From positions 248,001 through 312,000 of the forward strand of contig NZ_JAHFZZ010000003.1 in the NCBI RefSeq assembly GCF_018603905.1: a DNA stretch of 64,000 nucleotides, given 5' to 3'. The notes under the pieces are model-generated. The model worked only from the letters and a program-made list of their open reading frames with translations. It made no database searches and had not been told where the DNA came from. This stretch comes from Nonomuraea sp. NEAU-A123. Lineage in GTDB: Bacteria; Actinomycetota; Actinomycetes; Streptosporangiales; Streptosporangiaceae. Shown here piece after piece: positions 20,779-44,985 of the stretch. Both the position numbers and the translations under genes were made by a program. The stretch's first letter is position 1; each line of letters begins with the position of its first letter.

Positions 20779-20841
20779 GAAAGGCGGCCCTGCCTCTGGA
20801 AAACCCCTGAGGCCGATCCGCAGCCTATGAGGGGGTAGTCG

Positions 20842-22821
20842 ATGACGGGTGAGCCCGTCCGGGGGTCGCGGGACTTCCGGTTGATGGTGGCGCCGGAGCC
20901 GTTCGATCCGGTGGAGGCACGGCCGTCCGTCATGGCGGCGGGGCAGCAGGCGACGGTCGTGCAGTTCGCGGCGTTGCCGAGCGAGCCGGACATCGCCCGT
21001 CTCAAGGCGTCGTACGGCCTCCGCCTGGACAAGTTCATCCCGAACCTGGCCTACCTGGAACGCCTGGACACCGCGACCGCCGACCGCGTACGCGCGGACT
21101 TCCTGGTCAGGGCGGTCACCCCATTCCCGCAGGCGTCGAAGCTCGCCCCCACGATCCCCGCCACCGGGCCGCTCGACCTGACGATGGTGCTGTTCGAGGA
21201 CTCGGACCCCGCCGCCGTCACGGCCGCGCTGACCGCGATCGGCGCGCGTGACATCGCCACGACCGACGACCGGGAGAGCGGCGGGCGGTTGCGGTTGCAC
21301 CTCACGCTCGACGATCCGTCCAGGGTCGCCCAGGCCGCGGCGATCGACGACGTCATCTGGATCGAGCCCGAGCCCGAGTTCACCCTCATGGACGCCGGGG
21401 CGGCACGGGTGATCCAGTCGGGCGACCCGTCCAGCGGCCCGGTTTGGATCCACAACCTGCACGGCGAGGACCAGGTGATCGGGATGATCGACCAGGGCGG
21501 CGTCGACCTGGATCACTGCTTCTTCGCCGACAACCCGCCGAACAAGCCCGGTCCGAACCATCGCAAGGTGGTCCGGGCGTTCAACGAAGGCGTCGTCGGC
21601 ACCCACTTCATGTGGATGGCCGGCATCATCGCCGGTGACCAGCTCGGCTTCTCCGGCAATCACCCGAACCGTGGCGGTGCGTGGGCCGCCAAGCTCGTCA
21701 CCCGCAGCCTCGGGGACCTGAAGCGAGAGAAGATCAGTACGGGTTTCATGGTCTTCAGCCTCGAGACCCTGCTGAAGGCGTCGAGCGACGAAGGTGCGCG
21801 CGTCCACAACCTGAGCTGGGCGACCGGCAAGGTGGCGGCCTACGACGTGATCGCCCAGGACGCGGACAGGTTCAGCTTCGACCACGAGGAGCAGTTGCTG
21901 GTCGCGGCCGGCCAGAACGTGGAGCAGGGGCCGGAGAACCTGCCGCCCGGGATCGCGTTCAACACGCTCTGCGTCGCGGCCACGAAAGCCTTCCCCGACC
22001 ACATGTCGCGGGGCAACGGGGTGAACGGTCCGACGCCCGACGGCCGCCGCAAGCCGGACCTCATGGCGGTCGGCTGCGGCATCACCACCTCGACGATCCC
22101 TACGCCCCCTCCCAAAGGCCCGTTCTGCGACGTGGAAACGATCGCGTGCGGCTGCAGCGCCGCGACGGCGAACACGTCGGCCGCGGCCGCGCTGGTGCGC
22201 CAGTACTTCCAGAGGGGCTTCTACCCGGCCGGCGAACCGCGGCCAGACAAGGTCATCAAGCAGCCGTCAGGAGCGCTGATCAAGGCGGTGCTGCTCAACT
22301 CGACCGTCCGCATGACCGATCATCCCGGCTACCCGAACGACATCACGGGCTGGGGGATCATCCAGCTCGACCGGACGCTGTTCTTCAAGGACTCCTCCAC
22401 CCGCAGGCTGATCGTCAAGGACGTCCCGAAGAGCGCCGGCCTGCGGATGGACGAGACGCGTACGTCCCAGTTCTTCGTCAACAGCGGCACGGAGCCGCTG
22501 AAGATCACCCTGGTGTGGGTCAACCGGCCGTCGTCCGACCAGAACATGCCGCATCCCCGGGTGGACGCCATCAGGTTCGAGGTGGAGGACTCCCAAGGCA
22601 ACTTTTACATGGGCAACGACTTCGACGGGATCGCCGGGGTCTCGCGGAAGCTGGCGACGGCCCCGGCCAACCCGCCGGACGCGATCAACAACGTCCAGAT
22701 GGTCATCGTGCAACAGCCCACTCCAGGGACCTGGAGGATCAGGCTGCGCCAGTCCGGGCACCGGGAGAAACAGCGCTACGCGCTCGTGGTCTCCGGTGAC
22801 GTCCTCGTGGACGAGCTATGA
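20842..22821 (+). CDS. subtilisin-like (S8) protein, paralogue 1 of 3
   Basis: First gene of the eight-gene operon; ATG 20842 follows GAGGGGG. The 659-aa protein has an N-terminal prodomain-like region (1-190, with ATVVQFAALPSEPDIARL and the conserved TPFPQASKL), a subtilase domain (about 200-460) and a C-terminal beta-sandwich (about 540-655) like that of KP-43-type subtilases (LKITLVWVN, NNVQMVI). Putative catalytic residues: D217 in GMIDQGG, H255 in GTHFMWMAGIIAG (three extra residues after His), N359 in AAGQN, S439 in GCSAATA. All four are present, though in unusual contexts. There is no signal peptide, which is rare for subtilases. It overlaps the next gene by 4 bp. Confidence 0.8.
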   Translation: MTGEPVRGSRDFRLMVAPEPFDPVEARPSVMAAGQQATVVQFAALPSEPDIARLKASYGLRLDKFIPNLAYLERLDTATADRVRADFLVRAVTPFPQASKLAPTIPATGPLDLTMVLFEDSDPAAVTAALTAIGARDIATTDDRESGGRLRLHLTLDDPSRVAQAAAIDDVIWIEPEPEFTLMDAGAARVIQSGDPSSGPVWIHNLHGEDQVIGMIDQGGVDLDHCFFADNPPNKPGPNHRKVVRAFNEGVVGTHFMWMAGIIAGDQLGFSGNHPNRGGAWAAKLVTRSLGDLKREKISTGFMVFSLETLLKASSDEGARVHNLSWATGKVAAYDVIAQDADRFSFDHEEQLLVAAGQNVEQGPENLPPGIAFNTLCVAATKAFPDHMSRGNGVNGPTPDGRRKPDLMAVGCGITTSTIPTPPPKGPFCDVETIACGCSAATANTSAAAALVRQYFQRGFYPAGEPRPDKVIKQPSGALIKAVLLNSTVRMTDHPGYPNDITGWGIIQLDRTLFFKDSSTRRLIVKDVPKSAGLRMDETRTSQFFVNSGTEPLKITLVWVNRPSSDQNMPHPRVDAIRFEVEDSQGNFYMGNDFDGIAGVSRKLATAPANPPDAINNVQMVIVQQPTPGTWRIRLRQSGHREKQRYALVVSGDVLVDEL

Positions 22822-24758
22822 CGGGCCGGAGTCCCGACTTCCGGCTGATGGTGGGGCCGGAGCCGTTCGATCCCGTGGAGCTCGTACAGGAGAGCGCGGC
22901 GGCTGGGGCGCGGGCGACGGTCGTGCAGTTCGCGGCGTCGCTGAGCGGGCCGGACATCGCCCGGCTCCAGGCGGCGTACGGGCTGCGGCTGGACCGGTTC
23001 GTCCCGAATCTGGCCTACCTCGAACGGCTGGACGCGGCGACGGCCGACCGGGTGCGCGCGGACTTTCTGGTCCGGGCGGTCACCCCGTTCCCGCAGGCGT
23101 CCAAGCTCTCGCCCGACATCCCGGCCACCGGGCCGCTCAACCTGACAGCGGTGCTGTTCGACGACTCCGATGCCACCGCCGTCACAGCGGCGTTGACCGC
23201 ACTCGGCGCGCGCGACGTCGCGACGAGCGACGCCCGCGAGTTCGGCGGCAGGCTGCGCCTGGTCTTCGGGCTCGACGACGCGACCAGGCTCGCCCAGGTC
23301 GCGGCGCTGGACGACGTCACGTGGCTCGAACCGGCGCCCGCGGTCGAGAACCAGGACGTGCCGTCCGCCCAGACGCTCCAGTCCGGCGACCCGGCCCGGG
23401 GCACCGTGTGGGATCGGCACCTGCACGGCGAGGACCAGGTGATCCAGATCATCGAAGAGGGCACGCTCGACCTCAACCACTGCTTCTTCGCCGATGCCGC
23501 CCCGAACAGGCCAGGCCCGGGTCATCGCAAGGTACGCGCGCTGTTCAAAAGGGCCAACACCGCGCTCGACAGCCACTTCATGAAGGTCGCGGGCATCGCC
23601 GCCGGCGACGAGATCGGCAACTCCGGCCAGCACCAGGACCGCGGCGGCGCCTGGGCCGCGAAGATCGTCGGCAACGACAGCGCCGCGCTGCGCGACCTGG
23701 GCCCGAATCACCGCAGCGTCCACCAGTTCCTGGAGGACGGGAGGGGCGTCGGCGCGACCGTCCACAACTTCAGTTGGGTCAACGCCATCACCGTCCGCTA
23801 CGAGTCCACTGCCCGGGACGTGGACGCGTTCTGTTTCGCCCGCGAGGAGCAGGTGGTGGTCGCCGGCGGGCCGAACACGCGGCCGAACGCGAAGAACCTG
23901 CCGCCCGGCATCGCGCTCAACGCGATCTGCGTCGCGGCGGCCAGGGCCCACCCCGGCCACATGTCGCGGGGCAGCGGCGTGGACGGGCCGTCGTTCGACA
24001 GCCGCCGCAAGCCGGACCTGATGGCCGTCGGCTGCGGCATCAGGACCTCCGTCCTGCCGCCCGCGCCGTCCCAGGGCCTGTACTGCGACACCGCCCTCCA
24101 GGCGTGCGGCACCAGCTTCGCGACGCCGAACGCGTCGGCCGCCGCCGCCCTCGTACGCCAGTACTTCACGCAGGGCTTCTACCCGAACGGCAAGCCCGAG
24201 CAGGACAAGGTCGTCAAGCAGCCGTCAGGCGCGCTGATCAAGGCGGTGCTGCTGAACGCGACCGTCGACATGACCGGCCACCCCGGCTATCCGAGCGACA
24301 TCGAGGGCTGGGGGCTCATCCAGCTCGACCGGGCCCTGTTCTTCGAGAACGGCACGCGCAAGCTGATCGTGCACGACGTCCGGCGCGCCGCCGCCCTGGG
24401 GACGTCCACGACCCGCTCGTACGGCTTCACCGTCGACAACGCGGGCGAGCAGTTGAAGATCACCTTCGTCTGGACGAGCCAGGCGATGACCGAGGTGGCG
24501 CCGTTCACCCCGGACCCCATCCGGTTCGAGGTGGAGGACCCCGCCGGGGGCTTCTACATGGGCAACGACTTCGACGTGCCCAACGGCGTCTCGCGGAAGC
24601 TGGCGGCGCCCCCGAAAGCGCCGCCCGACATCGCCAACAACGTCCAGATGGTCGTCGTGAACAACCCCGCTCCCGGCGCCTGGACGATCCGGCTCCGCCC
24701 CGTGCTCACGCGGGCGCCGCAGGGCTTCGCGCTGGTGATCACGGGGGGTGTGCGATGA
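22818..24758 (+). CDS. subtilisin-like (S8) protein, paralogue 2, catalytic Asp replaced
   Basis: A 646-aa tandem paralogue of the preceding protein with the same three-part layout. The subtilase His (H253, DSHFMKVAGIAAG) and Ser (S433, canonical GTSFATPNAS) are intact, but the position of the catalytic Asp reads E213 (QIIEEGTLD instead of IDxG). N353 (AGGPN) is the likely oxyanion Asn. Asp-to-Glu usually cripples subtilases, so this may be a weak protease, a regulated one or a structural subunit. No signal peptide; ATG 22818 lies inside the previous stop. Confidence 0.8.
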   Translation: MTGRSPDFRLMVGPEPFDPVELVQESAAAGARATVVQFAASLSGPDIARLQAAYGLRLDRFVPNLAYLERLDAATADRVRADFLVRAVTPFPQASKLSPDIPATGPLNLTAVLFDDSDATAVTAALTALGARDVATSDAREFGGRLRLVFGLDDATRLAQVAALDDVTWLEPAPAVENQDVPSAQTLQSGDPARGTVWDRHLHGEDQVIQIIEEGTLDLNHCFFADAAPNRPGPGHRKVRALFKRANTALDSHFMKVAGIAAGDEIGNSGQHQDRGGAWAAKIVGNDSAALRDLGPNHRSVHQFLEDGRGVGATVHNFSWVNAITVRYESTARDVDAFCFAREEQVVVAGGPNTRPNAKNLPPGIALNAICVAAARAHPGHMSRGSGVDGPSFDSRRKPDLMAVGCGIRTSVLPPAPSQGLYCDTALQACGTSFATPNASAAAALVRQYFTQGFYPNGKPEQDKVVKQPSGALIKAVLLNATVDMTGHPGYPSDIEGWGLIQLDRALFFENGTRKLIVHDVRRAAALGTSTTRSYGFTVDNAGEQLKITFVWTSQAMTEVAPFTPDPIRFEVEDPAGGFYMGNDFDVPNGVSRKLAAPPKAPPDIANNVQMVVVNNPAPGAWTIRLRPVLTRAPQGFALVITGGVR

Positions 24759-26707
24759 GGAGTGAGGGACAGGACTTCCGGCTGCTGGTGGGGCCGGAGC
24801 CGTTCGACCCCGCGCAGGTCGAGCCCGCCGTCGCGGCGGCCGGACCGCAGGCGACGGTCGTGCAGTTCGCGGCGTTGCTGAGCGGGCCGGACATCGCCCG
24901 TCTCAAGGTGGCGTACGGGCTGCGGCTGGACCGGTTCATTCCGAACCTGGCCTATCTCGAACGGCTGGACGCCGCGACCGCTGGCCGCGTACGCGCGGAC
25001 TTCCTGGTCAGGGCGGTCACGCCGTTCCCGCAGGCGTCGAAACTCGCCCCGGACATCCCGGCCACCGGGCCGCTCGACCTGACAGCGGTGCTGTTCGACG
25101 ACTCCGACGCCACCGCCGTCACCGCGGCGCTGACGACGCTCGGCGCACGCGACGTCGCGACGAGCGACGCCCGGGCGTTCGGCGGCCGGTTGCGCCTGCG
25201 CCTCACCCTCGACGTCGCGACCAAGCTCGCCCAGGTCGCGGCGGTCGAGGACATCACGTGGATCGAACCGGTGCCCACGATCGTGGACGCGGACGTGCCC
25301 TCCGCCCAGACGACCCAGTCCGGCGACCCGGCACGGGGCACGATCTGGGCCCACGAGCTGCATGGCGAGAACCAGGTGATCCAGATCATCGAGCGGGGCA
25401 CGCTCGACCTCAACCACTGCTTCTTCGCCGACACCGCCCCCAACAAGCCCGGCCCGGGCCACCGCAAGGTGCGTGAGCTGTTCAATCCGACGAGCGCCGC
25501 ACCCCGCGACCACTTCATGAAGGTCGCGGGCATCGCCGCCGGGGACGAGCTGGGCAACTCCGGGCAGCACCAGGACCGCGGCGGCGCCTGGGCCGCGAAG
25601 ATCGCCGGCAACGACGCCAACCTGTTCCTCGCGCCGCCGGACCGGAATCGGGGTACGCGAACCCTCCACGACCTGCTGGAGGACGGGAGGGGCGTCGGCG
25701 CGACCATCCACAACATGAGCTGGAACACCAACCTCCGCTACGACATCGCCGCCCGGGACGTGGACGCGTTCTGCATCGCCCGCGAGGAACAGGTGGTGGT
25801 CGCCGCCGGTGAGAACACGGGCGTCAATCCGAAGAATGCCTCCCCCAGCGTCGCGTTCAACACGATCTGCGTCGCGGCGGCCAAGGCTCATCCCGACCAC
25901 ATGTCGCGAGGCAGCGGGGTGGACGGGCCGTCGATCGACGGCCGCCGCAAGCCGGACCTGTTGGCCGTCGGCTGCGGCATCAGGACCTCCGTCCTGCCTC
26001 CCACGCCGTCCACGGGCCTGTACTGCGACACCGCCCTCCAGACCCGGTGCAGCACCAGCTTCGCGGCGCCCAACGTGTCGGCCGCAGCCGCCCTCGTACG
26101 CCAGTACTTCACGCAGGGCTTCTACCCCCTGGGCCGACCGGTGGACGGGAACCGCGTCCTCAGCCCGTCAGGGGCGCTGATCAAGGCGGTGCTGCTGAAC
26201 GCGACCGTCGACATGACGGGCCATCCCGGCTATCCGACCGACACCGAGGGCTGGGGGCTCATCCAGCTCGACCGCACGCTCGTCTTCGACGGCCCCGGCA
26301 CCCGCTCGCTGATCACGATCGACATCCCGAGCCGGGCCGGGCTGCGCCTGGCCGAGACCCGCTCGTACCGCTTCGGCGTCAGAGACCCGAACGAGCCGTT
26401 GAAGATCACCTTCGTGTGGGCGAACCGGCCGCCGTCCGAGCACGTGGTGCTTCCCACCGTGCAGGCGATCAGGTTCGAGGTCGAGGATCCCGCCGGGAAC
26501 CTCTACGCGGGCAACGACTTCGACGTGCCCAGCGGTTTCTCCCGGCAACGGAAGACCAGCCCGCCCGTTCCGCCGGACATCACGAACAACGTCCAGATGG
26601 TCGTCCTGCCGAGCCCCGTCGTCGGTCCATGGACGATCCGGCTCCGCCCTTATTTGAACCTGGAAACCCAGGGCTACGCGCTGGTCATATCCGGCGGCGT
26701 GACCTAG
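24755..26707 (+). CDS. subtilisin-like (S8) protein, paralogue 3, catalytic Asp replaced
   Basis: A 650-aa paralogue, closest to paralogue 2. It shares the Glu substitution (E213 in QIIERGTLD), with H253 (RDHFMKVAGIAAG), N354 (AAGEN) and S435 (STSFAAPN, slightly off the canonical GTSMATP). The prodomain-like N-terminus and C-terminal sandwich are conserved. ATG 24755 overlaps the previous stop by 4 bp, although the frame stays open far upstream as a shadow of paralogue 2. Three copies in a row imply subunits with different roles in one assembly. Confidence 0.8.
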   Translation: MRSEGQDFRLLVGPEPFDPAQVEPAVAAAGPQATVVQFAALLSGPDIARLKVAYGLRLDRFIPNLAYLERLDAATAGRVRADFLVRAVTPFPQASKLAPDIPATGPLDLTAVLFDDSDATAVTAALTTLGARDVATSDARAFGGRLRLRLTLDVATKLAQVAAVEDITWIEPVPTIVDADVPSAQTTQSGDPARGTIWAHELHGENQVIQIIERGTLDLNHCFFADTAPNKPGPGHRKVRELFNPTSAAPRDHFMKVAGIAAGDELGNSGQHQDRGGAWAAKIAGNDANLFLAPPDRNRGTRTLHDLLEDGRGVGATIHNMSWNTNLRYDIAARDVDAFCIAREEQVVVAAGENTGVNPKNASPSVAFNTICVAAAKAHPDHMSRGSGVDGPSIDGRRKPDLLAVGCGIRTSVLPPTPSTGLYCDTALQTRCSTSFAAPNVSAAAALVRQYFTQGFYPLGRPVDGNRVLSPSGALIKAVLLNATVDMTGHPGYPTDTEGWGLIQLDRTLVFDGPGTRSLITIDIPSRAGLRLAETRSYRFGVRDPNEPLKITFVWANRPPSEHVVLPTVQAIRFEVEDPAGNLYAGNDFDVPSGFSRQRKTSPPVPPDITNNVQMVVLPSPVVGPWTIRLRPYLNLETQGYALVISGGVT

Positions 26708-26723
26708 ACCGGAGGTATCCGCG

Positions 26724-29700
26724 ATGGCATTGTCCGTCGAATCTTTGATGCTCGAGGTTGGCAAGGCGTTCGCACCTTTGGAGCAGCGCCTGCGCGGCGA
26801 TGAGATCCCGCTGTTGTTCGCCGAGATCGGCTTGCCGGCGCCCGGCGTCGTGCTGGCCGCGCAACCCGTACGCACCGCGGTGGAGGGCGCCGCCACGGCG
26901 CTGAGCGGATTGCCCCGCTCGCTGTCGGACCTGGCCGCGGCGATCGAGGCCCGGGACGCCGGACGGATCGCGGAGACCGTGTCCGCGGTCGGCTCGCTGA
27001 TCACGACCGTGGCCGACGCGGTCGGCGTGGTGGCCGGCGCGATCCGGGCGGCCGCGGCGGCGGCCGGGCCGAACCGGCCCGAGGTCGAGGCGTTCGCCGG
27101 CGAACTGGCGGAGCGGCTGTTCGGCTTCGCGCTGATCACCTACCTCCAGGACCGGAAACCGATCGTGGCGAACGTCCTGGAGCTGATCGGCGTCCTGGAG
27201 TCGACCCCGATCGCCGCGACCCCCGGGGCGCCCACGCACGTGCGCCGGGTGCTGCGCCTGGACCGGGTGAGCGGTTTCCTGCACGACCCCGTCGGCACGC
27301 TGAGGGAGCTCTACCGCTGGGGCGACCCGGACTTCGACTGGGACCTGCTGCTCCAGCGGCTGTCGATCTTCCTCACCACGGTGTCGAACTTCGCCTTCCC
27401 GCAGCCGGGGCCACCGCCGTTCCTGCGGGTCATCGGGGTGGACATCGGCAGGACCGACGACCAGATCCCCGGCGTGGCGGCCACGCTGCGGCTCGACGCG
27501 AAGGACCACCTCCAGCTCACCGTGCCCGTCAACGACGCCGTGGCGCTGGTCGCGACGTCCGACGCGGCGATGGAGGCCGGGGCGGCGGTCGAGCTGCTGC
27601 CGCCCGCCGACCTGCGGGTCGTCCCGCCGACCGGGGAGGTGCGGGGCTCGGTGCGGTTCGGCGTCCAGGCGCCGCCCGCCAACGGCGGCCCGCCGCTCGT
27701 CATCCTCGGCACGGCCGGCGGGTCCCGGATCGAGGCGCGGTCACTGCGCATCGCGGGCGGGGCGGACCTCGACTGGAACGCCGCGGCGCGCCGCGCCGAG
27801 GGCGCCCTGGTGCTGGAGGCCGCCCTTGAGGGCGGCAAGATCGTGCTGAACCTGGCGGACGCGGACGGCTTTCTCGGCGCGATCCTGCCGTCCGGCTCCA
27901 TCGAGCTCGACGCCGACGTGGGACTGTCCTGGTCGAGCGCGACCGGGCTGCGCTTCCGCGGTACGGGAGGGGTCGAGGCCGACATCCCTGTCGACCTGCA
28001 CGCCGGCCCGGTGGACATCCGCTCGCTGCACCTCGGCCTGCGCCTGACCGACGACGGGGTGGCGTTTGAGGTGTCCGGCACGGTCGGTGCCCGGCTCGGC
28101 CCGATCGCGGCCGTGGCCGACCGGACCGGGGCCATCCTTCACCTGTCGCGGCAGAACGGCGTCCTTGGGCTCAGCGCCGACTTCAAGCCGCCCACGGGGG
28201 TCGGGCTGACCGTCAGCGCGCCCGGCGCGTCCGGCGGCGGGTTCCTCTCCTTCGACGCCGAACGCGGCGAGTACGCCGGCGCGCTGGAACTGGAGATCGT
28301 GGACTTCCTCGCGGTCAAGGGCATCGGGCTCATCACCACCCGCCAGCCGGACGGCTCACCGGGCTTCTCGCTGCTCATCGTGCTCACCGCGGAATTCCCC
28401 TCAGGCATCCAGCTCGGCGCCGGCTTCACGCTGCTGGCCGTCGGCGGGCTGCTCGGCCTCAACCGGAGGATGAACCTCCAGGCGCTCGTCGAAGGCGTGC
28501 AGAGCGGGGCGATCGAGTCGGTCGCGTTCCCGAAGGACGTGGTCGCGAACGCGCCGCGGATCCTGTCCGACCTCGGCCGGTTCTTCCCCGCCGATCCGGG
28601 CACGTTCCTCATCGGCCCCATGGCCAAGATCGGCTGGGGCACGCCGGCCCTCATCACCGCCTCGGTCGGCCTGATCATCGAGGTGCCCGGGAACATCGCG
28701 GTCCTCGGCGTGGTACGGGCCGCGCTGCCCTCCCCCGACGACCCGCTGCTGCTCCTGCAGGCCCAGTTCGTCGGCGCGCTGGAGCCGGACAAGGGACGGC
28801 TGTGGTTCTTCGCCAAGCTCTTCGAGTCGCGCATCGTGGGGATGACCGCCGAGGGCGGTATGGGCCTGCTGGTGCAGTGGAGCGGCGACCGCGAGCTGAT
28901 CGTGACCATCGGCGGCTTCCACCCCGGTTTCCGGCCGCCGCCGCTGCCGTTCCCCACGCCGGGCCGGCTCGCGGTGGACCTGCTCAACCGGGGCAGGCAA
29001 CTGATCCGGGTGACCGGCTACTTCGCGATCACCCCCAACACCGTGCAGTTCGGCGGCAGCGTCGAGGTGCGGCTGGGGTTCAGCTCGTTCGGGGTCGAGG
29101 GTCATCTCGCGCTCGACGGGCTGATCAACCGCGACCCGTTCCGGTACAAGGCGCACAGCTCGGGGCATGTGTCGCTCAAGGCGTTCGGCGTCGGCGTGTT
29201 CAGCATCAGCCTGGACTTCACGCTGGAGGGCCCGGCGCCGTGGCGGGTGCACGGGCGCGGCTCGATCGGGTTCCTGTTCTTCTCCATCTCCGCCGACTTC
29301 GACTTCTCCTTCGGCGAGGAACTGGCGCTGTTCCTGCCGCCGATCCCCGTGCTCCCGCTGCTGGCGGCGGAGTTCGCCAAGAACGAGAGCTGGGAGACCC
29401 GGCTGCCCGACGGCGGTGTCCGTACGCTGGTCTCCCTGCGTCGTCTGCCCGCGAGCGACGACCTGGTGCTGCATCCGCTCGGCACGCTCGTCGTCCGGCA
29501 GCGGGCGCTGCCGCTGGACGTCCGGGTGGACCGGGTAGGCGGGCAGCGGGCCAGCGACGGGCGGCGGTTCAGCGTCACCACGCCGGACGGCGGCGGGTTC
29601 ACCCAGAAGTCGGTCACCGGCGAGAAGTTCGCGATGGCCCAGTTCCAGGACATGTCCGACGCGGCCAAGCTGTCGCGCCCCTCGTTCGAGACGCAGGACG

Positions 29701-35500: not shown

Positions 35501-35610
35501 AGAACCTGCCGCTGTGGTTCAGCGGGCTGGGTTCCGCCGACCTCGCCTACATCTTGCTCCAGGTGCCCGTCATGGTCGCCGTCCACGCTCAGGAAATGGT
35601 GCCGCGATGA
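32512..35610 (+). CDS. large cytosolic protein of unknown function, 1032 aa
   Basis: Starts at GTG 32512 within the previous stop. No enzyme motif is visible. Noted blocks are YTFLPWLRAGINTRI at the N-terminus, FPWRYSPAPS, RLTPWVALVVLAAD, a mid-region with HNWVHRLNLDPRFRVAANLG, and a C-terminal half with HEMAREMLWREFPTDQRGTPF and RPAEPIEVWNDLTWSDVDP. It has no membrane spans or signal. My recollection is that similar hypothetical proteins occur in scattered bacteria beside the next two genes, but I cannot confirm this. The strict coupling says it is made with its neighbours in fixed proportion. Confidence 0.6.
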   Translation: MTDNAYTFLPWLRAGINTRITTDPGAAARATVHIPLNLSGEALDGGTITHDAGRPVQMYGPGDVVGVDPRAISRAEPRPGTANVEPNFLAHIEFVDEDFPWRYSPAPSGPATARLTPWVALVVLAADTEFTDAAGTDPLPAIDITDPVRTMPPADQLGAWAHVHVNGSLADPVATDSTAGALTALDAVLTTDPDSACSRLICPRHLRPETAYEAFLVPAFETGRLAGLGFDPAGAPSGLYSSWGPPYANRPVGNRMPYYHRWAFRTGTAGDFEFLVRQLQPQHADARVGRREIDVHDSPGFDLDGIPDQGGVLPLGGALRVPETVDPADNWDHFADPPSPTPLYPHPFEQALARVINLADDFQQETPPKAGAGPDPIVTPPLYGRWHALTSRLLRDRNDTPVSTEESHNWVHRLNLDPRFRVAANLGAQVVKDHDEELMAAAWAQVGDVLVANGRIRAAQLAREVGHVLQTRHLELPAGTARTAAAAAPSGRALTLTAPAHSRVTTTLTATNSLVAGQDSEVAVGFHVAGSRVAAAPVSPAMRRIIRPGSRLMRSLDFAEGRRGDALLFRMDDPVNPVVAAPVKITPGALVTPADVNAVLHPDRPPGTDPVDVLAHSPDFVLRAPGDPVTPHPGTSDSAEATRFKTALRELHQGIDAGVAVGQTPRPPALDLTTTTTDTLTGLRSDTTVPRALLDGAVSLPERLRPFAAAFTEAMAYPVFDIPMFRSLIDISLDAFVPNLNLLPPNSLTLLDNNHEFIESYMAGLNHEMAREMLWREFPTDQRGTPFRQFWDPVTALPEPGVSPADRRERDYDIPPMHLWPTTARLGENANPHDGIVLVVRGELLRKYPTTAIYAHRAEWPPGADGLPDKSQPRRLVTITGQPTTDQIQLPRFEATVDPDIYLIGFGLTADKAVGGPDDPGWFFVLKERPGDPRFGLDDRDPGRPAEPIEVWNDLTWSDVDPAGRGFVTLDPAVTVPLAGLDGSDDAGKLDQHAEDENLPLWFSGLGSADLAYILLQVPVMVAVHAQEMVPR

Positions 35611-38600
35611 CCACGCTCAGCGACGCGTTCCCGGTTCTGCTCGCGCCCGTGCGGGTCGAGACCCGGTTCACGCCGACGGAACTGCTGGTCCGGGTGTTCC
35701 CGGACGAGTGGGCCGTGGACAAGTTCGAGACCAAGCCCACCGACGCCGAGATCACCGCGATCGACGCGTACTGGACCGCCCGGTGGGCGGCCGGCGGGCG
35801 CGCCGCGGGACTCCAGGCCGCCTGGCAGGAGCTGGCCACACGGATACCGCCCGGCCGCGCGGCGTGGCTGCTGCGCGGCCGCGTCCCGGCCAACCCGAAC
35901 GAGGAGCCGGCCGGAGTGGCCGATGGCGCCGTGGTGCTGGTCATCCGCGGCGCCGCGCCCCCGGCCGCGAACAACCGCCAGCCGTCGGTCACGTACTGGA
36001 GCGCGGTGTGGCGGGCGCACGGCGACCGGCTGCGGCTGCGCCAGGCCGACGCCGCGCTGGTCACGGCGGTCGGCGTCCCGCGGGCGAACGTCATCCGCGC
36101 CAACCGCCCGTTCGGGGTGGACGGCGCGCTGACGACCCCGACCGACGACGTGCACGTCGCGTTCCTCGTGCTGACGCCGCCCGCCACGGGCACGACGGCG
36201 ACGGACGCCTGGACGCAGGGCGCCCGGGCCCGCCTGCTGCCGGACCGGTTCCAGGTCCTCGGGTTCAACGGCGGCCGCCAGGTGGTGTCGATGACCGGCG
36301 CCGCGGTGCCGGCCACGCTCGCGGTGAGCCCGGACCCGGCCGCCGGCGACCAGATCTCCGTCAACGAGCAGACCGGCGTCCTGCACGTGCCGGACGCGCT
36401 GCGCTGGCTCGTCGACTTCGACCGGGCCGTGACCGTCGGCATGGGCGTACGGATCCCGCTCACCGACGAGATCCGCGGCGGCCTGGAACGCCTGGTCGTG
36501 CTGGGCCTGCGCGAGCAGGCGGCGCCCACGCAGACGGCGGCCGACCTCACCGACCTGATCAACCGCCACCTGCGCGGCCCGGACGGGTTCGCCCTGCTGC
36601 CGCAGGGCACGCCGACCAACAACTCCGAGATCGTGCCGGCCGGCCAGGACGAGGAGAGCGAGGCGGCCGCCGCGCTGCGCGCCTCCGGCGGGGTCGCCGC
36701 CGCGGCGGCGCGGGACTGGACGACCCTGACCGACGGCCGGCAGCTCACTGACCTGCTCGGCATCGACCCCGGCGTGCTGTCCGGCATGCCGAACGCGGAC
36801 GGCCGGGACCAGCGGGACGCCCGGGCGGCCAACACCGCGCTGTGGCCGGCGACGTGGGGCTACTTCCTCCAGACGGCGCTGCACCCACTGCTCGGTCCGG
36901 CCGCGGTCGCCGAGACCCGCGACTTCTTCCTGAAGTACGTCTCCGGCCGCGGCCCGCTGCCCGTGGTGAAGATCGGACGGCAGCCGTACGGGATCCTGCC
37001 CACCACCGCGTTCTCCCGGCTGACGTTCCCGGACTCCGCGGCGCACCGCCGGGCGCTCAACCGGGTTCTGACCGAGGCGGGCAAGGACTGGGCGGCAGCC
37101 GCGGCGCGGGTGCCGCACCTCGGCGACGGCGCGAGCGACGCGCACCAGCAGTTGCTCGACCTGGTCGCGCTGCACCCGACGTCGGCCGAGTACCACCAGC
37201 GGTACGCGCAGAGCGTCGAGGACCTGTTCAACCGGGAGAACCTCGCCGGGCGGGGCGCCACCGTCCTGTCCACGGTGGACGGGCTCGGGCTGGCCGCCCC
37301 GGTGCGCGCCCTGCTCGGCCGGTTCGGCGCGGACACCGGCCCCGGCCGGGACCCGGACCTGCTGCGCCGGCTGTTCACCGATTTCCACCAGCCGCTGCTT
37401 GCGCCCCTGGTGGACGACCGCCCGCTGTCCGAGACCGCCCATATCCGGCCGTACACCACCGACGGGCGCGACTACCTGACCTGGCTGGCCGCGCTTGCCC
37501 GCACCAACCTGAACGGCATCCGGCTGGAGTCGGGCTTCGCCGAGGGCTCCCGCCCGGCGACGCTGCTGTACCTGCTGCTGCGGCACGCGATCCTGCTCGG
37601 CTGGGACGACGCGGCCCGCGCGCTCCTGGCCGCCGCCGGCCAGTCCGCCGGGCCGCCGGTCGACCCGCCGTTCATCCACGTGCACCTGCCCGGGCCCGGC
37701 GAGGACGCCTCCAGCGAGAGCCGCTTCCGGCTGCTGTACTCGCCTGCCCCCGCCGTCACGGGAAACCCCGATCAGCTCCTGGTCAACTTCATCCCGAGCG
37801 TGCTGAACCAGCCGGGCCCGACGGCCGCGCTCGCCGACCAGGCCCGCGCGCTGGAGGTCCTGGCCACCCTGCCGACCGCGCGGCTGGAACGGGTGCTCGC
37901 CGAGCACCTGGACCTGGCCACGTACCGGCTGGACGCGTGGCGGCTGGGCCTGGCCACCGAGCGCCTCGGCGAGCTGCGGTTCGCGCCCGACGGCACCGCA
38001 CGGCCCGGCCTGCACCTGGGGGCGTACGGCTACCTGGAGAACGTACGGCCGCATGCCGCGAACCTGGAGCCCGTCCCGCTCACCGGCCCGCTCGCGACGG
38101 TGTTCGCCGGCGCCCAGCCGCTGCTGCACGACCCGGAGAACGAGGGCTTCGTGCACGCGCCGTCGCTCGGTCACGCCCGTACGGCTGCCGTGCTGCGGGC
38201 CGGGTACGTCGCCAACGCCGACCGGGACAGCCCGGGACCGTTCGCGGTGAACCTCAGCTCCGACCGGGTCCGGCTCGCACTGTCGATCCTGGACGGGATG
38301 CGGCGCGGTCAGTCGCTCGGCGCGCTGCTGGGCTACCGGTTCGAGCGCGGCCTGCACGACCGGCACGGCCAGGCCGAGGTGGACCAATTCATCGGGGGGC
38401 TGCGGTTCGCGTTCCCGTTGCGGGCGGGCCGGATTCCACAGACCGCGGACGCCGGGCTGGACCAGATCGGGCAGGACGAGATCGAGCCGGACCGGATCGG
38501 GCGGGTCGAGGCGCGCAACGTGATCGACGGCCTGGCCCTGGCCCGCCACCTGACCCGCGGCGGCGTGTCGCGGACGTACCCGTTCGACATCGAGGGCCTG

Positions 38601-40835
38601 CCGGAGGCCGATTCCGGGCAGAGGGCGGCGATCAGCAAGGAGGCCGACCGGCTGCTGGACGCCCACGACGCGGTCGCCGACCTCGCCGTCGCCGAGGCCA
38701 CGCACCAGGCGCTGGCCGGCAATCCCGAGCGCGCGTCCGCGACCCTCGACGCGTACGCCAAGGAGGGGCTGCCGCCCGACCCCGAGGTGGTCAGGTCGCC
38801 GCGCAGCGGCACCACGCTCACCCACCGGTTCGGGCTGCGCCTGCGGGCGGGTCTGCGCCCGGGCAACGGGGACACCCCCCGCGCGCAGGCCGAGCCGGCC
38901 GTGGACGACTGGCTGCCGAGTCTGCTGCCGCCGGACGGGTCCGTCGCCGCGCGCGTCACCTGGACCGACCCGGTCAACGGCCATGCCCACGAGCACGTGG
39001 TCACCCAGGACGACGTCGGCCTGGCGCCGATCGACCTGCTGTGGGCGGTGCGGCCGACGGACGCGGCGGCGATGACCGACCTGGACGACCGGATCATCGG
39101 CGTCGTGGTGGACCGGGACGACCCGCGCCCGGACGCCGAGCTGACCATCCGCTACACCGAGCGGATCAACGGCAAGGTCACGTTCTTCGAACTGTCCCCG
39201 CTGATCACCGCGCTGCGCACGCTGCTGACCACGGGCCGGCCGCTGAAGCCGACCGACCTGGTGCCGGCGTCCGGCCCGGTCACGCTCGACCGGAGGATGG
39301 ACGACGCGGTGACAGTGCCCCGGCAGCGGCCGGTCGCGGTCCGCGAGGCGCTCGACGACCTGGGCGACGACGTGGCCGACCTGCTGGCCGACCTGGTCCG
39401 GCTGTACCCGCCGGCCCCGGCGCCGCCGCGGCGCGAGGACATCGTCGACGACATCGACGCGCTGCTGACCCGCTACGCCCGGCTGGTCACCAGGGCGGCC
39501 GGGTTCGGCATGGTGCGCAGCGGCTGGGGCGAGCTGACCGCCTGGCGGCGCGGCGTGTTCTCCCAGGTGCTGGCGGACGTGGCCGCCACCGCGGCCCGGC
39601 TGGCGCGTACGCTCGCCCGGGCCGACGCGCTGCTGGCCGCCTACGACGCGCTGCCGCGGCGCACCCCGGACGACGAGCGGTTCCGCCGGCTGCACGAAGT
39701 GGAGCCGCTGCTCACGACCACGCCGGACCCCGACCCGCCGGACCGGCCCGACCGGTTCCGCAACGACATCGGGCGCCTGCGCGACACCTTCGCCCGGCGC
39801 CAGGACGACCTGGAGGACATCGCCAGGACCAGCCGGACGAGCCTGAGCGGCCTGCTGGACCAGGTCGGCGACCTGCTGCCGCTGACCGGCCTCGATCCGG
39901 CCGGCCTGGACCTGACCCCGGCGCTGGACAGGGTCGTCGCGTTCGGCGCGGAACTGCTGTCCCGTACGGGGGCTCTGCGGGCCGAGATCACCGGCCGCCT
40001 CGCCTCGGCCACGGCCGCGCTGACGAGCGCCGACAACGCCGTCACCGACCCGGACCGCGCGAAGGCGACCACCGACGCGCTGCGGGCGCTGCTCGGCCCG
40101 GACGCGCTGGTCGTGCCGGAGTACACGCTGACCGACGATCTCGGCGACGAACTGCACGACGCGTTCGACGACAGCGACGACCTGGTCAGGCACCTGACCC
40201 GGGCGCCGGTCTCGCGGGACTTCCCGGTCGACGACTGGCTGCACGGCCTGGCCCGGGTCCGGGAGATGCCGCGGCTGTGGGAGCGGGTGACGCTGCTCAG
40301 CGACGCGCTCCGCAACGACGACCTCGACGACATCGAGGATCGGGAGCCGCGGCTGCGGCCGGTCCAGTTGCCGTTCGCGGACAATGACCACTGGCTGGCC
40401 ATGGAGTTCGCGGACGGCGCCGTGATCGACCAGGACCGGCTGCTGTTCACCGCGCACTACGCCGACGACCCGCCCCGCGGGTCCGGGCCCGCGAGCGGTC
40501 TGCTGTTCGACGAGTGGACCGAGGTGCTGCCCACCGAGCGGGAGACGACCGGGATCGCCGTGCACGCCGACGGCCCGGACTCCGAGCCGCCGCAGAGCAT
40601 GCTGCTGGTCGTGCCGCCCGTACGTACTGGATCATGGCAGGCGGACGACCTCGTCGCGGCGGTCACCGAGACCTTCGACCTGGCCCGCGCGCGGCTGGTG
40701 GAGCCCGCGCAGCTCGACGACACCGGGTACGCGCACCTGCTGCCCGCGACCGTCCTGTCCGCGACCCGCCAGCCCATCACCATCAGCACCGACCTCGCCG
40801 TCGCCAACGCAAGGTGGAAGGCCGACCATGAGTGA
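35607..40835 (+). CDS. giant cytosolic protein of unknown function, 1742 aa
   Basis: ATG 35607 overlaps the previous stop; the protein begins MTTLSDAFPVLLAPVRVETR. It is soluble, rich in Asp/Arg/Leu, with several recognisable blocks: GRQPYGILPTTAFSRL, LLGYRFERGLHDRHG followed by EVDQFIGGLRFAFPL, a helical section with long Leu/Asp/Arg heptads (about 1480-1650), and RPVQLPFADNDHWLAMEF near the C-terminus. No nucleotide-binding, protease or toxin motif is apparent. Blocks such as LGYRFERGLH look family-wide to me, but I cannot name a function. Its last 8 bp overlap the next start. Confidence 0.6.
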   Translation: MTTLSDAFPVLLAPVRVETRFTPTELLVRVFPDEWAVDKFETKPTDAEITAIDAYWTARWAAGGRAAGLQAAWQELATRIPPGRAAWLLRGRVPANPNEEPAGVADGAVVLVIRGAAPPAANNRQPSVTYWSAVWRAHGDRLRLRQADAALVTAVGVPRANVIRANRPFGVDGALTTPTDDVHVAFLVLTPPATGTTATDAWTQGARARLLPDRFQVLGFNGGRQVVSMTGAAVPATLAVSPDPAAGDQISVNEQTGVLHVPDALRWLVDFDRAVTVGMGVRIPLTDEIRGGLERLVVLGLREQAAPTQTAADLTDLINRHLRGPDGFALLPQGTPTNNSEIVPAGQDEESEAAAALRASGGVAAAAARDWTTLTDGRQLTDLLGIDPGVLSGMPNADGRDQRDARAANTALWPATWGYFLQTALHPLLGPAAVAETRDFFLKYVSGRGPLPVVKIGRQPYGILPTTAFSRLTFPDSAAHRRALNRVLTEAGKDWAAAAARVPHLGDGASDAHQQLLDLVALHPTSAEYHQRYAQSVEDLFNRENLAGRGATVLSTVDGLGLAAPVRALLGRFGADTGPGRDPDLLRRLFTDFHQPLLAPLVDDRPLSETAHIRPYTTDGRDYLTWLAALARTNLNGIRLESGFAEGSRPATLLYLLLRHAILLGWDDAARALLAAAGQSAGPPVDPPFIHVHLPGPGEDASSESRFRLLYSPAPAVTGNPDQLLVNFIPSVLNQPGPTAALADQARALEVLATLPTARLERVLAEHLDLATYRLDAWRLGLATERLGELRFAPDGTARPGLHLGAYGYLENVRPHAANLEPVPLTGPLATVFAGAQPLLHDPENEGFVHAPSLGHARTAAVLRAGYVANADRDSPGPFAVNLSSDRVRLALSILDGMRRGQSLGALLGYRFERGLHDRHGQAEVDQFIGGLRFAFPLRAGRIPQTADAGLDQIGQDEIEPDRIGRVEARNVIDGLALARHLTRGGVSRTYPFDIEGLPEADSGQRAAISKEADRLLDAHDAVADLAVAEATHQALAGNPERASATLDAYAKEGLPPDPEVVRSPRSGTTLTHRFGLRLRAGLRPGNGDTPRAQAEPAVDDWLPSLLPPDGSVAARVTWTDPVNGHAHEHVVTQDDVGLAPIDLLWAVRPTDAAAMTDLDDRIIGVVVDRDDPRPDAELTIRYTERINGKVTFFELSPLITALRTLLTTGRPLKPTDLVPASGPVTLDRRMDDAVTVPRQRPVAVREALDDLGDDVADLLADLVRLYPPAPAPPRREDIVDDIDALLTRYARLVTRAAGFGMVRSGWGELTAWRRGVFSQVLADVAATAARLARTLARADALLAAYDALPRRTPDDERFRRLHEVEPLLTTTPDPDPPDRPDRFRNDIGRLRDTFARRQDDLEDIARTSRTSLSGLLDQVGDLLPLTGLDPAGLDLTPALDRVVAFGAELLSRTGALRAEITGRLASATAALTSADNAVTDPDRAKATTDALRALLGPDALVVPEYTLTDDLGDELHDAFDDSDDLVRHLTRAPVSRDFPVDDWLHGLARVREMPRLWERVTLLSDALRNDDLDDIEDREPRLRPVQLPFADNDHWLAMEFADGAVIDQDRLLFTAHYADDPPRGSGPASGLLFDEWTEVLPTERETTGIAVHADGPDSEPPQSMLLVVPPVRTGSWQADDLVAAVTETFDLARARLVEPAQLDDTGYAHLLPATVLSATRQPITISTDLAVANARWKADHE

Positions 40836-42624
40836 GCCCCGTATCGCCGATCTCCCCACGGCGCTGGCCCATCGCGACTTCCCCACGGTGGGCCTGTGGA
40901 ACCGCCTGGAGGGGCGTCCCCGTACCACCGACTTCGGCAGGGCGCTGCGGGCCGAGGTACGCGACCCGCTGTGGCTGCTGGCCCGGCAGTGGCAGCTCGG
41001 CGAGTTCCGCGCCACCGACGGCGGCTCGCCGGTGACGGCCACGTACTCGGTCGTCGCCAGCCCGCTCACCCGCTTCCGCCCCGACGCCGATCCGGCCCCG
41101 GCGCCGGGACCGCTGCCCGCCGGCCGTCCGCTGGAGACGGTGGTGGAGAGGCGGCCGCTGCCGTTCGCGTTCGGCGCCGAGCCGATCTCGTTCGACCTGC
41201 GGCTGTCGCTGGGCCGCCGCTGGCTGAAGCTCGTGGCGCGGGCCTCGCTCCAGCACAACCGCGAGGTCGCCGAACAGTACGTCGCCCGCTACCGCATCAC
41301 CCTCCCCGACCCGGACGCCGAGGCCGACGCCCAGCGCGTGGCGCACCCGGAGGTCTGGGCGGGCATGCAGGCGGTGGCCGGCCGCCGGATGGACGGCTAC
41401 CTGCTGTACCAGCACGTCAAGGGTGGCGGAACGGCCGCCGACGGGATCACCGGGCTGCGGCGGCAGGACCGCGACGCGCTCAACGCCCTCGGCCCCCGCC
41501 TGATCGCCTGGTTCGACCAGCTCATCGACCAGCCGGGCGCGGCGAGCGCGTGGGACCCGCGACGGCTGGAGCACCGCTTCTCGGTCGCCGCGGCGGCGCC
41601 CGGCGGCGAGACGGTGCTGTCGGCCCCCGAGTACCCGGGCGGCGAGCTGGACTGGCACGCGTTCTCGGCGGCCCCCGACGACACCCTCGGCGGCGCCGGC
41701 ACCGCGCCCGCCGCGCTGAACCGCACGGTGTTCCCCACGCCGGCCCGCTTCTCCGGCATGCCGCTGCCACGCTGGTGGGCGGTCGAGGACGGCCGCACCA
41801 ACTTCGCCGCGGTCACCCCGGACAGCACCGACCTGGCCCGGCTGATCTTCCTCGAGTTCGCGCTCGTGTTCAGCAACGACTGGTACATCCTGCCGTGCGA
41901 CGTGCCGGCCGGCACGTTCGCGGCCGTGCAGGGGCTCGCGGTGACCGACGTGTTCGGCGCGCGGCGCTGGATCACCCCCGCCGGCACGGGCGCCGCGCAC
42001 GACTGGCAGCTCTGGTCGATGTACGTCCACGGCGACGCGCCGGGCCTCCTCCTCCCGCCCGGGACGCCGAAGGTGGCCGACGGCCCGGGGCTGGAAGAGG
42101 TCATGCTGGCGCGGGACGAGAACGCCAACATGGTGTGGGGCATCGAACAGACCGTCCGGATGCCCACCGGCGAGCCGCGCTCCGGCGCCGAGGCGGCCGC
42201 CGAGACCCTCGCCTTCCGCCGCCGGGTGCGCCCGCCCGCGCTGGCCGACGATCCGCGCGCGCCGGTCGCGTACCGGCTGATGAGCTCGGTCCCGGAGAAC
42301 TGGATCCCGTTCATCCCGGTCCACGTCCCCGGCGACAACCGCAGCGTGCAGTTGCGGCGCGCCACGATGCCCAGCGAGGTGGACGCCTCTCCCGTCCCTG
42401 CCCGGACCGCGCTCCTTCGCGAGGGCTTCGACGCCGGCCACGGCTACTTCATCAACGAGGAGGAGGTACCCGCCACGGGCACCCGCCTGACCGCCGCGTA
42501 CAACCGCACCCGCACCCGGACCGGCCAGGTGATCGTCTGGCTCACCGTACGGCGCGACACCGGCCGGGGCGGACGGTCCAGCGGCCTGTCCTTCGACCTG
42601 CTGACCGACACACCGGCGAGCTGA
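40828..42624 (+). CDS. cytosolic protein of unknown function, 598 aa
   Basis: Last gene of the operon, starting 8 bp inside the preceding one (ATG 40828). It contains NRLEGRPRTTDFGRALRAEV, DPLWLLARQWQLGEFRATDG, ALVFSNDWYILPCDVPAG and RRATMPSEVD. These blocks look conserved and structural rather than enzymatic. No membrane segments or signal peptide. A 13-bp hairpin follows 14 bp after the stop and should end the transcript. Its role is probably tied to the 1742-aa protein, with which it shares a similar tone of composition. Function unknown. Confidence 0.6.
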   Translation: MSEPRIADLPTALAHRDFPTVGLWNRLEGRPRTTDFGRALRAEVRDPLWLLARQWQLGEFRATDGGSPVTATYSVVASPLTRFRPDADPAPAPGPLPAGRPLETVVERRPLPFAFGAEPISFDLRLSLGRRWLKLVARASLQHNREVAEQYVARYRITLPDPDAEADAQRVAHPEVWAGMQAVAGRRMDGYLLYQHVKGGGTAADGITGLRRQDRDALNALGPRLIAWFDQLIDQPGAASAWDPRRLEHRFSVAAAAPGGETVLSAPEYPGGELDWHAFSAAPDDTLGGAGTAPAALNRTVFPTPARFSGMPLPRWWAVEDGRTNFAAVTPDSTDLARLIFLEFALVFSNDWYILPCDVPAGTFAAVQGLAVTDVFGARRWITPAGTGAAHDWQLWSMYVHGDAPGLLLPPGTPKVADGPGLEEVMLARDENANMVWGIEQTVRMPTGEPRSGAEAAAETLAFRRRVRPPALADDPRAPVAYRLMSSVPENWIPFIPVHVPGDNRSVQLRRATMPSEVDASPVPARTALLREGFDAGHGYFINEEEVPATGTRLTAAYNRTRTRTGQVIVWLTVRRDTGRGGRSSGLSFDLLTDTPAS

Positions 42625-42637
42625 TCCGGCCATCGGA

Positions 42638-42669
42638 CCGCTACGCGCGCCTGACGGCGGGCGTAGCGG
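42638..42669 (+). terminator. terminator of the giant operon
   Basis: CCGCTACGC (42638-42646) pairs with GCGTAGCGG (42661-42669), and inside it CGCC (42648-42651) pairs with GGCG (42656-42659) around the loop TGAC. The stem is 13 bp with a single G/G mismatch. No T tract, as is common in high-GC actinomycetes. Confidence 0.7.
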
Positions 42670-42685
42670 GCACGCCCACCCCGAG

Positions 42686-42916
42686 GTGGCCGGCCCAACA
42701 GATGTGGAACGCGCGATCGAGCAGATCAAAGCGGCACAACCAGCCCTTCACTTCCACATTGAACGCATCCTTGCTGACGCCGATCGGATCGCAGCCATCG
42801 GCAGCGTTCGCCAAGGACAGGACCCCGACACGCCAGGGACCGGCATGATCTGGCTGGTTCGGATGGCGGATGGACAGATGGCCGAAATGTGGACGTACCG
42901 CAGCACCACCCGATGA
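42686..42916 (+). pseudogene. SnoaL/NTF2-like fold fragment
   Basis: A 76-aa frame from GTG 42686. Its second half (HIERILADADRIAAIGSVR and WLVRMADGQMAEMWTYRS) resembles the C-terminal strands of SnoaL-like NTF2-fold proteins (such as ADGDRVA and RIADGKIAEHW). The N-terminal helices that complete the cone-shaped fold are missing, and there is no good ribosome-binding site. Probably the tail of a broken gene. Confidence 0.5.
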
Positions 42917-44864: not shown

Positions 44865-44877
44865 ACTCCAAGCCCGA

Positions 44878-44899
44878 GGGGGCCCGCCTCCGGGCCCCC
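44878..44899 (+). terminator. hairpin terminator
   Basis: GGGGGCCCG (44878-44886) and CGGGCCCCC (44891-44899) form a perfect 9-bp stem with loop CCTC, 13 bp after the stop of the frameshifted gene. Confidence 0.7.
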
Positions 44900-44985
44900 G
44901 ACCGGGTCGGCGAAGCGGGGCTTTCGGCCTCAACTGCCGTATCGCTACCATCAGGCACGAATCATCTATATTGGCGATTTTCGTC

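What the first reader, a model, noticed from the sequence alone, without database searches (positions are those of the whole stretch)
20842..42624. Eight-gene, 21.8-kb operon of three subtilisin-like proteins, kelch propellers and three giant unknown proteins
All eight genes run in one direction; six of the seven junctions overlap by 4-8 bp and the other gap is 16 bp, and a strong hairpin follows the last stop. The products (659, 646, 650, 1535, 395, 1032, 1742, 598 aa) all lack signal peptides and membrane spans, which is unusual for subtilases and kelch proteins. There are no phage tail, sheath, secretion or polyketide genes. I know of no named system with this set. Strict translational coupling over about 22 kb is usually kept only for stoichiometric complexes. 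A large protease-linked cytosolic machine (for proteolytic maturation, defence or development) is inference.
Basis: partly seen in the sequence, partly recalled or inferred. Interest (0 to 1): 0.92.

Follow-up and report, generated by a model that had tools for sequence, protein, structure and literature searches.

The report
Conserved protein machine with swappable enzymes
The eight genes form one operon of an apparently undescribed system, found in bacteria and archaea, in which four conserved proteins, three of them of unknown kind, sit behind an exchangeable enzyme, which suggests a machine that carries or deploys different enzymes.

Summary
Four genes (DUF6603 protein, g6, g7, g8) form a core found in the same order in seven bacterial phyla and in archaea. 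Of 61 loci classed, 59 have a recognisable enzyme in the slot before the core, from eight unrelated families: subtilases (two groups), trypsin-like proteases, M64-type and M14 metallopeptidases, PhoD-like phosphatases, phospholipase D, tyrosinase, galactose-oxidase-like. The window's three subtilases fill this slot. On a quick core tree the enzyme state changes at least 23 times, even between two sister Amycolatopsis. The first ~480 residues of the DUF6603 protein change with the enzyme; the rest of the core hardly does. Trypsin-like and half of the second subtilase group share a C-terminal domain seen only at these operons in 23 genomes searched. Active sites are complete in the three groups aligned; the window's subtilase group often has Glu for Asp. 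The DUF6603 domain is predicted as a giant amphipathic beta-sheet resembling membrane barrels; g6-g8 match no known family. Best reading: an effector complex that docks its enzyme by a matched adaptor onto a membrane-active scaffold. The modular design is well supported; delivery or killing is inference. No description was found in the open-access library searched.

The parts
20842..22821 (+). g1: S8 subtilase, cargo copy 1; Asp, His and Ser of the triad present
   Evidence: PF00082 1.4e-15; PDB 1wmd 1e-21; triad columns
22818..24758 (+). g2: S8 subtilase, cargo copy 2; Glu where the catalytic Asp is expected, His and Ser present
   Evidence: PF00082 2.5e-17
24755..26707 (+). g3: S8 subtilase, cargo copy 3; Glu where the catalytic Asp is expected, His and Ser present
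   Evidence: PF00082 2.1e-19
26724..28163 (+). g4 residues 1-480: cargo-matched adaptor part of the DUF6603 protein (helical, then beta)
   Evidence: identity depends on cargo type in 37 loci, boundary at about residue 480-520; AF2
27993..29663 (+). g4 residues 424-980: DUF6603 domain, predicted giant amphipathic beta-sheet or barrel
   Evidence: PF20248 2.8e-115; model pLDDT 84, pTM 0.53; fold matches; face contrast
30174..31331 (+). g4 residues 1151-1535: kelch repeats fused to the DUF6603 protein
   Evidence: PF01344, PF13964
31328..32515 (+). g5: separate kelch propeller protein, found by tblastn only in the actinobacterial clade
   Evidence: distribution
32512..35610 (+). g6: core protein of unknown family (1032 aa)
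   Evidence: no Pfam, NCBIfam, PHROG, PADLOC or PDB hit; conserved
35607..40835 (+). g7: core protein of unknown family (1742 aa)
   Evidence: no credible family hit; conserved
40828..42624 (+). g8: core protein of unknown family (598 aa); a segment at residues 46-60 invariant in many columns lies in a stretch (19-64) of pLDDT under 50, perhaps a partner interface
   Evidence: no fold match
42640..42696 (+). two hairpins after the operon, possible terminator

Best explanation
A modular effector complex. SHOWN: a conserved core (DUF6603 protein, g6, g7, g8) lies behind an enzyme slot, usually translationally coupled, whose occupant is exchanged among eight unrelated enzyme families, and the first ~480 residues of the DUF6603 protein change with the enzyme while the rest of the core hardly does. 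STRONGLY SUGGESTED: that N-terminal part is the docking adaptor for its enzyme; for trypsin-like and some subtilase cargo a C-terminal tail seen only at these operons may help loading. PREDICTED: the DUF6603 domain forms a wide amphipathic beta-sheet or barrel that meets membrane lipid. INFERRED: the complex is assembled in the cytosol (no convincing signal peptides), g6-g8 form its body, and on a trigger or on contact the sheet inserts in a membrane and brings the enzyme to or across it, to damage a target cell (competitor, predator or parasite) or the infected producer itself. In the window the cargo is a trio of subtilases of which g2 and g3 may be weakened.
For: Core order and distribution; co-occurrence in 296 genomes; cargo families; at least 23 cargo changes on the g7 tree, shuffled mean 38, least possible 10; adaptor test: residual identity difference +0.12 to +0.22 in residues 1-500, 0 of 500 permutations as high, -0.001 in 500-600, curves converging at 480-520, Amycolatopsis pair L032/L037 with g7 identity 0.76 but N-terminal identity 0.24; tail domain in 17 of 17 tail-cargo genomes only at the operon and in 0 of 6 with other cargo; active-site residues: S1 21 of 21 aligned proteins, S8 group B 12 of 12, M64-type 10 of 10; DUF6603 model like large barrels, amphipathic strands z 7; cargo dS 0.09-0.11 against core 0.19-0.24 between window and nearest relative; in S. 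hyaluromycini a DUF6603 remnant lies directly before the cargo genes, as a cassette insertion would leave.
Against: No direct evidence of delivery, toxicity or even complex formation. Linked recombination could exchange enzyme and N-terminus together without physical docking. The tail does not predict the adaptor: S1 against tailed S8 loci 0.32, against untailed 0.30; S1 adaptors are diverse (0.27-0.76). Glu replaces the catalytic Asp in 6 of 11 proteins of the window's subtilase group, and the PhoD motif is altered in some. Fold matches have TM-scores of 0.06-0.28, model pTM is 0.53, and I saw secondary structure, not coordinates. Such barrels usually live in outer membranes, which the window's host and haloarchaea lack (recalled). 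5 of 66 nearest-cargo proteins and 2 of 60 DUF6603 proteins rang the crude signal-peptide rule. Two of five plasmid records, Rhizobium and Halobellus, showed no recognised enzyme in the slot. Tyrosinase and galactose oxidase are unusual toxins.
Confidence: 0.42

Rival explanations
1. Intracellular defence: the core senses infection, the enzyme is the effector and the DUF6603 sheet permeabilises the cell's own membrane, as gasdermins do, so that the infected cell dies.
For: No convincing signal peptides, patchy distribution (4 of 54 same-genus genomes, the window's own included, with a close full-length g8), carriage on plasmids, exchangeable effectors; trypsin-like and subtilisin-like peptidases occur in described conflict systems (passages of PMC7159879).
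Against: No nuclease, NADase or NTPase among the slot families found; PADLOC finds only subtilase and IetS protease models on g1-g3; phosphatase, tyrosinase and oxidase cargo is odd for this role. Neighbouring genes were not searched for defence systems.
Confidence: 0.25
2. A secreted or surface enzyme platform for nutrients, matrix or cell wall, released by lysis or an unknown route, with exchangeable degradative enzymes.
For: Cargo belongs to families best known from outside the cell (recalled); kelch, lamin-tail, FG-GAP and peptidoglycan-binding domains occur in some members; an endolysin-like gene follows g8 in one Micromonospora locus.
Against: No signal peptides in 36 g6, 37 g7 and 45 g8 proteins by the crude rule; this does not explain the membrane-like sheet.
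Confidence: 0.15
3. A lipid-holding particle or lipid-transfer scaffold: the amphipathic DUF6603 sheet wraps lipid as ApoB does, and enzymes ride on it.
For: ApoB100 is among the Foldseek matches (9bdt, E 8.8e-4); one strongly hydrophobic sheet face.
Against: Barrel matches rank higher; cargo is rarely lipid-active (phospholipase D in 2 of 61 loci).
Confidence: 0.1
4. Proteolytic maturation machine.
For: Three subtilases in the window.
Against: The same slot holds a phosphatase, phospholipase, tyrosinase or oxidase in other loci.
Confidence: 0.04

Closest known systems
Tc (ABC) toxin complexes (start of abstract of PMC6868009 seen in a search listing)
   Same: Large multi-protein assembly with a membrane part and a non-conserved enzyme; the logic of a constant body and an exchangeable cargo
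   Different: No TcA, TcB/TcC or Rhs family hit in g1-g8; the enzyme is a separate gene
Cytoplasmic contractile injection systems of Streptomyces (start of abstract of PMC12237407 seen in a search listing)
   Same: A multi-protein machine in the cytoplasm of an actinomycete
   Different: No sheath, tube, baseplate or ATPase family in g1-g8
NTP-dependent conflict systems with trypsin-, caspase- and subtilisin-like peptidases (passages of PMC7159879 read)
   Same: Exchangeable peptidase effectors beside a constant core
   Different: No STAND, MoxR, vWA or GTPase part found in g1-g8; the constant core is g6-g8 plus DUF6603; effectors include phosphatase and oxidases
Large membrane beta-barrels: usher PapC, SprA, MtrB, OprD-family porins
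   Different: No detectable sequence relation; host without outer membrane (recalled); low TM-scores
Bacterial gasdermins with linked proteases (recalled)
   Same: Pore protein beside an exchangeable protease
   Different: No gasdermin model rang in Pfam; non-protease enzymes also fill the slot

Membership tests
DUF6603 (PF20248) | Pfam model above its cut-off | tested here: met
   386 bits against cut-off 27, g4 residues 424-980
Peptidase S8 | Pfam S8 above cut-off | tested here: met
   g1-g3 57.8-70.4 bits against 21.8
Peptidase S8 | Asp-His-Ser triad | tested here: inconclusive
   complete in g1; Glu at the Asp place in g2 and g3
Tc (ABC) toxin | TcA, TcB/TcC or Rhs families in the operon | tested here: not met
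   no such Pfam family at E up to 1 in g1-g8
Tc (ABC) toxin | pentameric syringe and cocoon architecture | not testable with these tools
   needs purified complex and cryo-EM
Contractile injection system | sheath, tube, baseplate and ATPase genes | tested here: not met
   none in g1-g8 by Pfam, NCBIfam and PHROGs; other loci were not scanned for them
Known anti-phage system of PADLOC-DB | core components of one listed system | tested here: not met
   only subtilase and IetS protease models ring, on g1-g3; none on g4-g8
Bacterial gasdermin | gasdermin-family pore protein | tested here: inconclusive
   no gasdermin model rang, but it is not known whether Pfam covers the bacterial ones
Outer-membrane beta-barrel | barrel fold | tested here: inconclusive
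Outer-membrane beta-barrel | signal peptide | tested here: not met
   none in g4 by a crude rule; 58 of 60 DUF6603 N-termini negative

The most novel reading that the evidence does not exclude
A prokaryote-wide class of effector machine: a giant beta-sheet or barrel translocon (DUF6603) plus three unknown giant proteins deploys any of many unrelated folded enzymes across a membrane, chosen by a swappable adaptor that is exchanged together with its enzyme.
Probability: 0.35. Interest if true: 0.95.

Novelty: categorically new. Interest (0 to 1): 0.86.

Why it matters
Three protein families of about 600-1740 aa, kept together from actinomycetes to haloarchaea, have no family name here and no known function. 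The exchange of unrelated enzymes at one slot, each with a matched N-terminal adaptor on a constant scaffold, points to a cargo-selection principle in an undescribed machine, and makes definite predictions (adaptor binds its own enzyme, sheet binds membrane). If it delivers folded enzymes, it would join the short list of such machines and would lie also in organisms without outer membranes.

Tried and rejected
Known families for g6-g8: Pfam, NCBIfam, PHROGs and PADLOC gave nothing credible; the T6SS immunity hit of g8 (E 0.015) and the phrog_18251 hit of g7 (E 0.087) are weak and treated as chance. PDB sequence profiles: g6 none, g7 six hits of E 0.05-0.82, taken as chance (g8 was not searched this way); DUF6603 by single sequence: none; one trypsin-like cargo by single sequence: none. 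g6 against g7 and g8: no relation; g7 against g8 weak, E 4e-4, probability 36, left open. g8 fold: no credible PDB or viral match. The idea that the shared C-terminal tail explains the adaptor was tested and not borne out. The tail search in 296 phylum genomes was empty and by itself shows nothing, so a positive control was run. Sigma-70-type promoter in 20300-21000: none found. Literature: DUF6603 and PF20248 have 0 papers; word searches listed no paper that I recognised as describing the set; subscription papers and preprints are not in the library. Immunity genes and defence neighbours were not searched for systematically.

My gene caller put wrong-strand genes in some high-GC loci; the upstream survey was redone with codon tables trained on the core genes, and two cases without a cargo call were checked by hand. 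The 'kel' label on distant DUF6603 proteins I take for a profile artefact. Rows dropped: L058 from the tree (no usable g7); 18 of the 78 loci were not classed for cargo (contig ends, no DUF6603 found, not held, or not asked for).
Full report
OBSERVATION. g1-g3 are S8 subtilases, g4 is a DUF6603 domain with kelch repeats, g5 a kelch protein, and g6, g7 and g8 match no family credibly. Hairpins follow. None of g1-g8 shows a signal peptide; the crude rule rang on its positive control, the window's GH16 protein.

DISTRIBUTION. g8 found 147 relatives among the candidate stretches of the genome collection; 78 loci were kept. Record titles, and the phyla that the tree tool gives for them, cover Actinomycetota, Cyanobacteriota, Pseudomonadota, Myxococcota, Planctomycetota, Acidobacteriota, Bacteroidota and a Nitrososphaerales archaeon; several are metagenome bins. 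Plasmids add haloarchaea. g6, g7 and g8 lie in that order on one strand in 75 of 78 loci (L026, L065 and L073 show g7-g8 only). DUF6603 is found in 37 of 37 and 28 of 30 of their genomes searched. In 296 genomes of the window's phylum, its own included, g8 is in 7, g6 in 6 and DUF6603 in 9; all 6 with g6 have the other two, three have DUF6603 alone, one a g8 piece alone. In the phylum of an Algoriphagus g8 is in 6 of 247, that genome included. In the window's genus 4 of 54 genomes, its own included, have a close full-length g8 and 5 more have weaker matches: it is an accessory system.

THE ENZYME SLOT. DNA upstream of the DUF6603 gene was read for 61 loci (60 of the 78, plus the window). In 59 the gene or genes before it are a recognisable enzyme, in most within about 20 bases or overlapping. 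Exceptions to tight spacing include five Bacteroidota PhoD loci (gaps of 37-106 bases) and the archaeal locus, where another gene on the other strand lies between. Types: S8 group A 4 loci (window, L002, L003, L040), S8 group B 13, S1 trypsin-like 12, PhoD-like 15, M64-type 10, phospholipase D 2, and one each of galactose-oxidase-like, M14 carboxypeptidase and tyrosinase; two unknown (L042, L054). Pfam calls rest on representatives; S1 rests on the aligned His, Asp and GDSG columns, since Pfam and a PDB search gave nothing; M64 is above the Pfam cut-off in L118 and below it in L092, PhoD above it in L090 and L095 and below it in L143; the remaining members were placed by BLAST clustering. Five plasmid records were looked at: Salinigranum has PhoD in the slot (protein 9), S. 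longwoodensis a 1514-aa gene homologous to a PhoD-cluster protein, Halobellus an unnamed gene without a Pfam hit, Rhizobium none recognised, and S. anthocyanicus only g8 with the end of g7. Active sites: S1 21 of 21 aligned proteins (11 of the 12 loci), S8 group B 12 of 12 (12 of the 13 loci), M64-type 10 of 10. Of 17 PhoD-cluster proteins 13 have the DDHE motif, two have DDHD, two lack it, one of these a gene piece. In S8 group A the Asp is Glu in 6 of 11 proteins, g2 and g3 among them, but each of the four loci keeps at least one copy with Asp.

EXCHANGE. On a g7 tree of 60 rows, 11 cargo states (the two S8 groups and the two unknowns counted apart) need at least 23 changes; 10 is the least possible and shuffled labels average 38. 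So cargo is inherited for a while and then replaced. Sister rows Amycolatopsis orientalis (S1) and Amycolatopsis sp. WAC 01376 (M64) are joined by a starred branch. The tree is a quick one, with long-branch warnings mostly outside the actinobacterial clade. In S. hyaluromycini (L003) a DUF6603 remnant of 328 aa lies directly before the two subtilase genes, as a cassette put in front of the domain would leave.

THE ADAPTOR. In 37 loci of that clade (666 pairs, 133 with the same cargo), identity in residues 1-500 of the DUF6603 protein depends on cargo after allowing for core divergence (residual +0.12 to +0.22; 0 of 500 permutations as high), but not in residues 500-600 (-0.001), and elsewhere only slightly (at most +0.015, in residues 600-700 and in g7 1351-1651). 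The permutations do not keep relatedness. The curves for same and different cargo meet at about residue 480-520. Pairs with different cargo have 0.17-0.38 identity there, whatever the core identity up to 0.80; pairs with the same cargo 0.27-0.96, the S1 group being the most diverse. Linked recombination explains the joint exchange; that the match has been kept through many exchanges argues for physical fit, which remains to be shown. Between the window and N. guangzhouensis the cargo genes have half the synonymous divergence of the core (0.09-0.11 against 0.19-0.24), one reading of which is recent movement of the cassette.

THE TAIL. A C-terminal domain of about 120 residues is shared by 20 of 21 S1 cargo proteins (19 of them in the profile) and, independently, by 6 of 12 S8 group B proteins, and by no other cargo searched. 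In 17 genomes with such cargo all 25 matches lie at the operon, and 6 genomes with other cargo have none (only 150 candidates were scored in most genomes). It does not predict the adaptor type.

MECHANISM AND STATUS. What is shown is modularity: constant core, exchangeable enzyme, matched adaptor. What it does with the enzyme is inferred; delivery or membrane attack fits best, abortive defence next. Tests of membership in Tc toxins, contractile systems and PADLOC systems by sequence failed for g1-g8; the working likeness to Tc toxins (constant body, variable enzyme) stands as an analogy only. No paper naming DUF6603 was found in the open-access library.

Noticed in passing
L101, L102, L104-L106, L108 (loci with DUF6603, no g6-g8 found in the 20 kb): A second DUF6603 setting: beside the DUF6603 gene lie proteins of two further families, homologous among these loci; in L101 they carry segments like phage structural repeats, in L102 an endonuclease/phosphatase-like gene precedes (weak).
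   Followed up: partly
L138 8772-9758 (oriented) before the subtilase genes of S. hyaluromycini: A DUF6603 remnant directly before the cargo genes: perhaps a scar of cassette exchange.
   Followed up: partly
L067 11901-14809, L069 11901-14809, L079 11862-15313: Genes just after g8 in Micromonospora loci; in L067, the only one scanned for the second gene, it looks like a phage endolysin with peptidoglycan-binding repeats.
   Followed up: partly
L143 and L177 (S. longwoodensis plasmid): The PhoD cargo in L143 and the 1514-aa gene in the slot of L177 carry a peptidoglycan-binding domain.
   Followed up: no
L172 17476-19806 (S. anthocyanicus plasmid): g8 with only the last part of g7, near IS5-family transposases: a remnant.
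   Followed up: partly
L107 1-11980 (Leptolyngbya, second locus): Different order in one genome: g7, g8, PhoD, DUF6603.
   Followed up: no
L169, L170 (haloarchaeal plasmids): g8 annotated with a lamin tail domain, found by Pfam in L169; the two Halobellus genes before DUF6603 are unnamed, the nearer one without a Pfam hit.
   Followed up: partly
g6 of L046, L049, L052: A strongly hydrophobic 19-residue stretch (hydropathy 2.8-2.9) in g6 of a myxobacterium, a planctomycete and a gammaproteobacterium, not in the other 33 g6 rows at a limit of 2.0.
   Followed up: no
L082 14538-17123 (+) and L089 2308-5265 (-): Two slot proteins of unknown family (861 and 985 aa); the first has HG and C motifs that recall caspase-like peptidases (recalled, not tested).
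   Followed up: no
L174 (MT835531.1): An unverified faecal scaffold deposited as phage carries a piece of DUF6603 and g6, g7 and g8 relatives in order; it may be bacterial DNA.
   Followed up: partly
window 44289-48863: Downstream genes look like a sensor-kinase cluster of the actinobacterial conservon type (by reading the translation, not searched).
   Followed up: no
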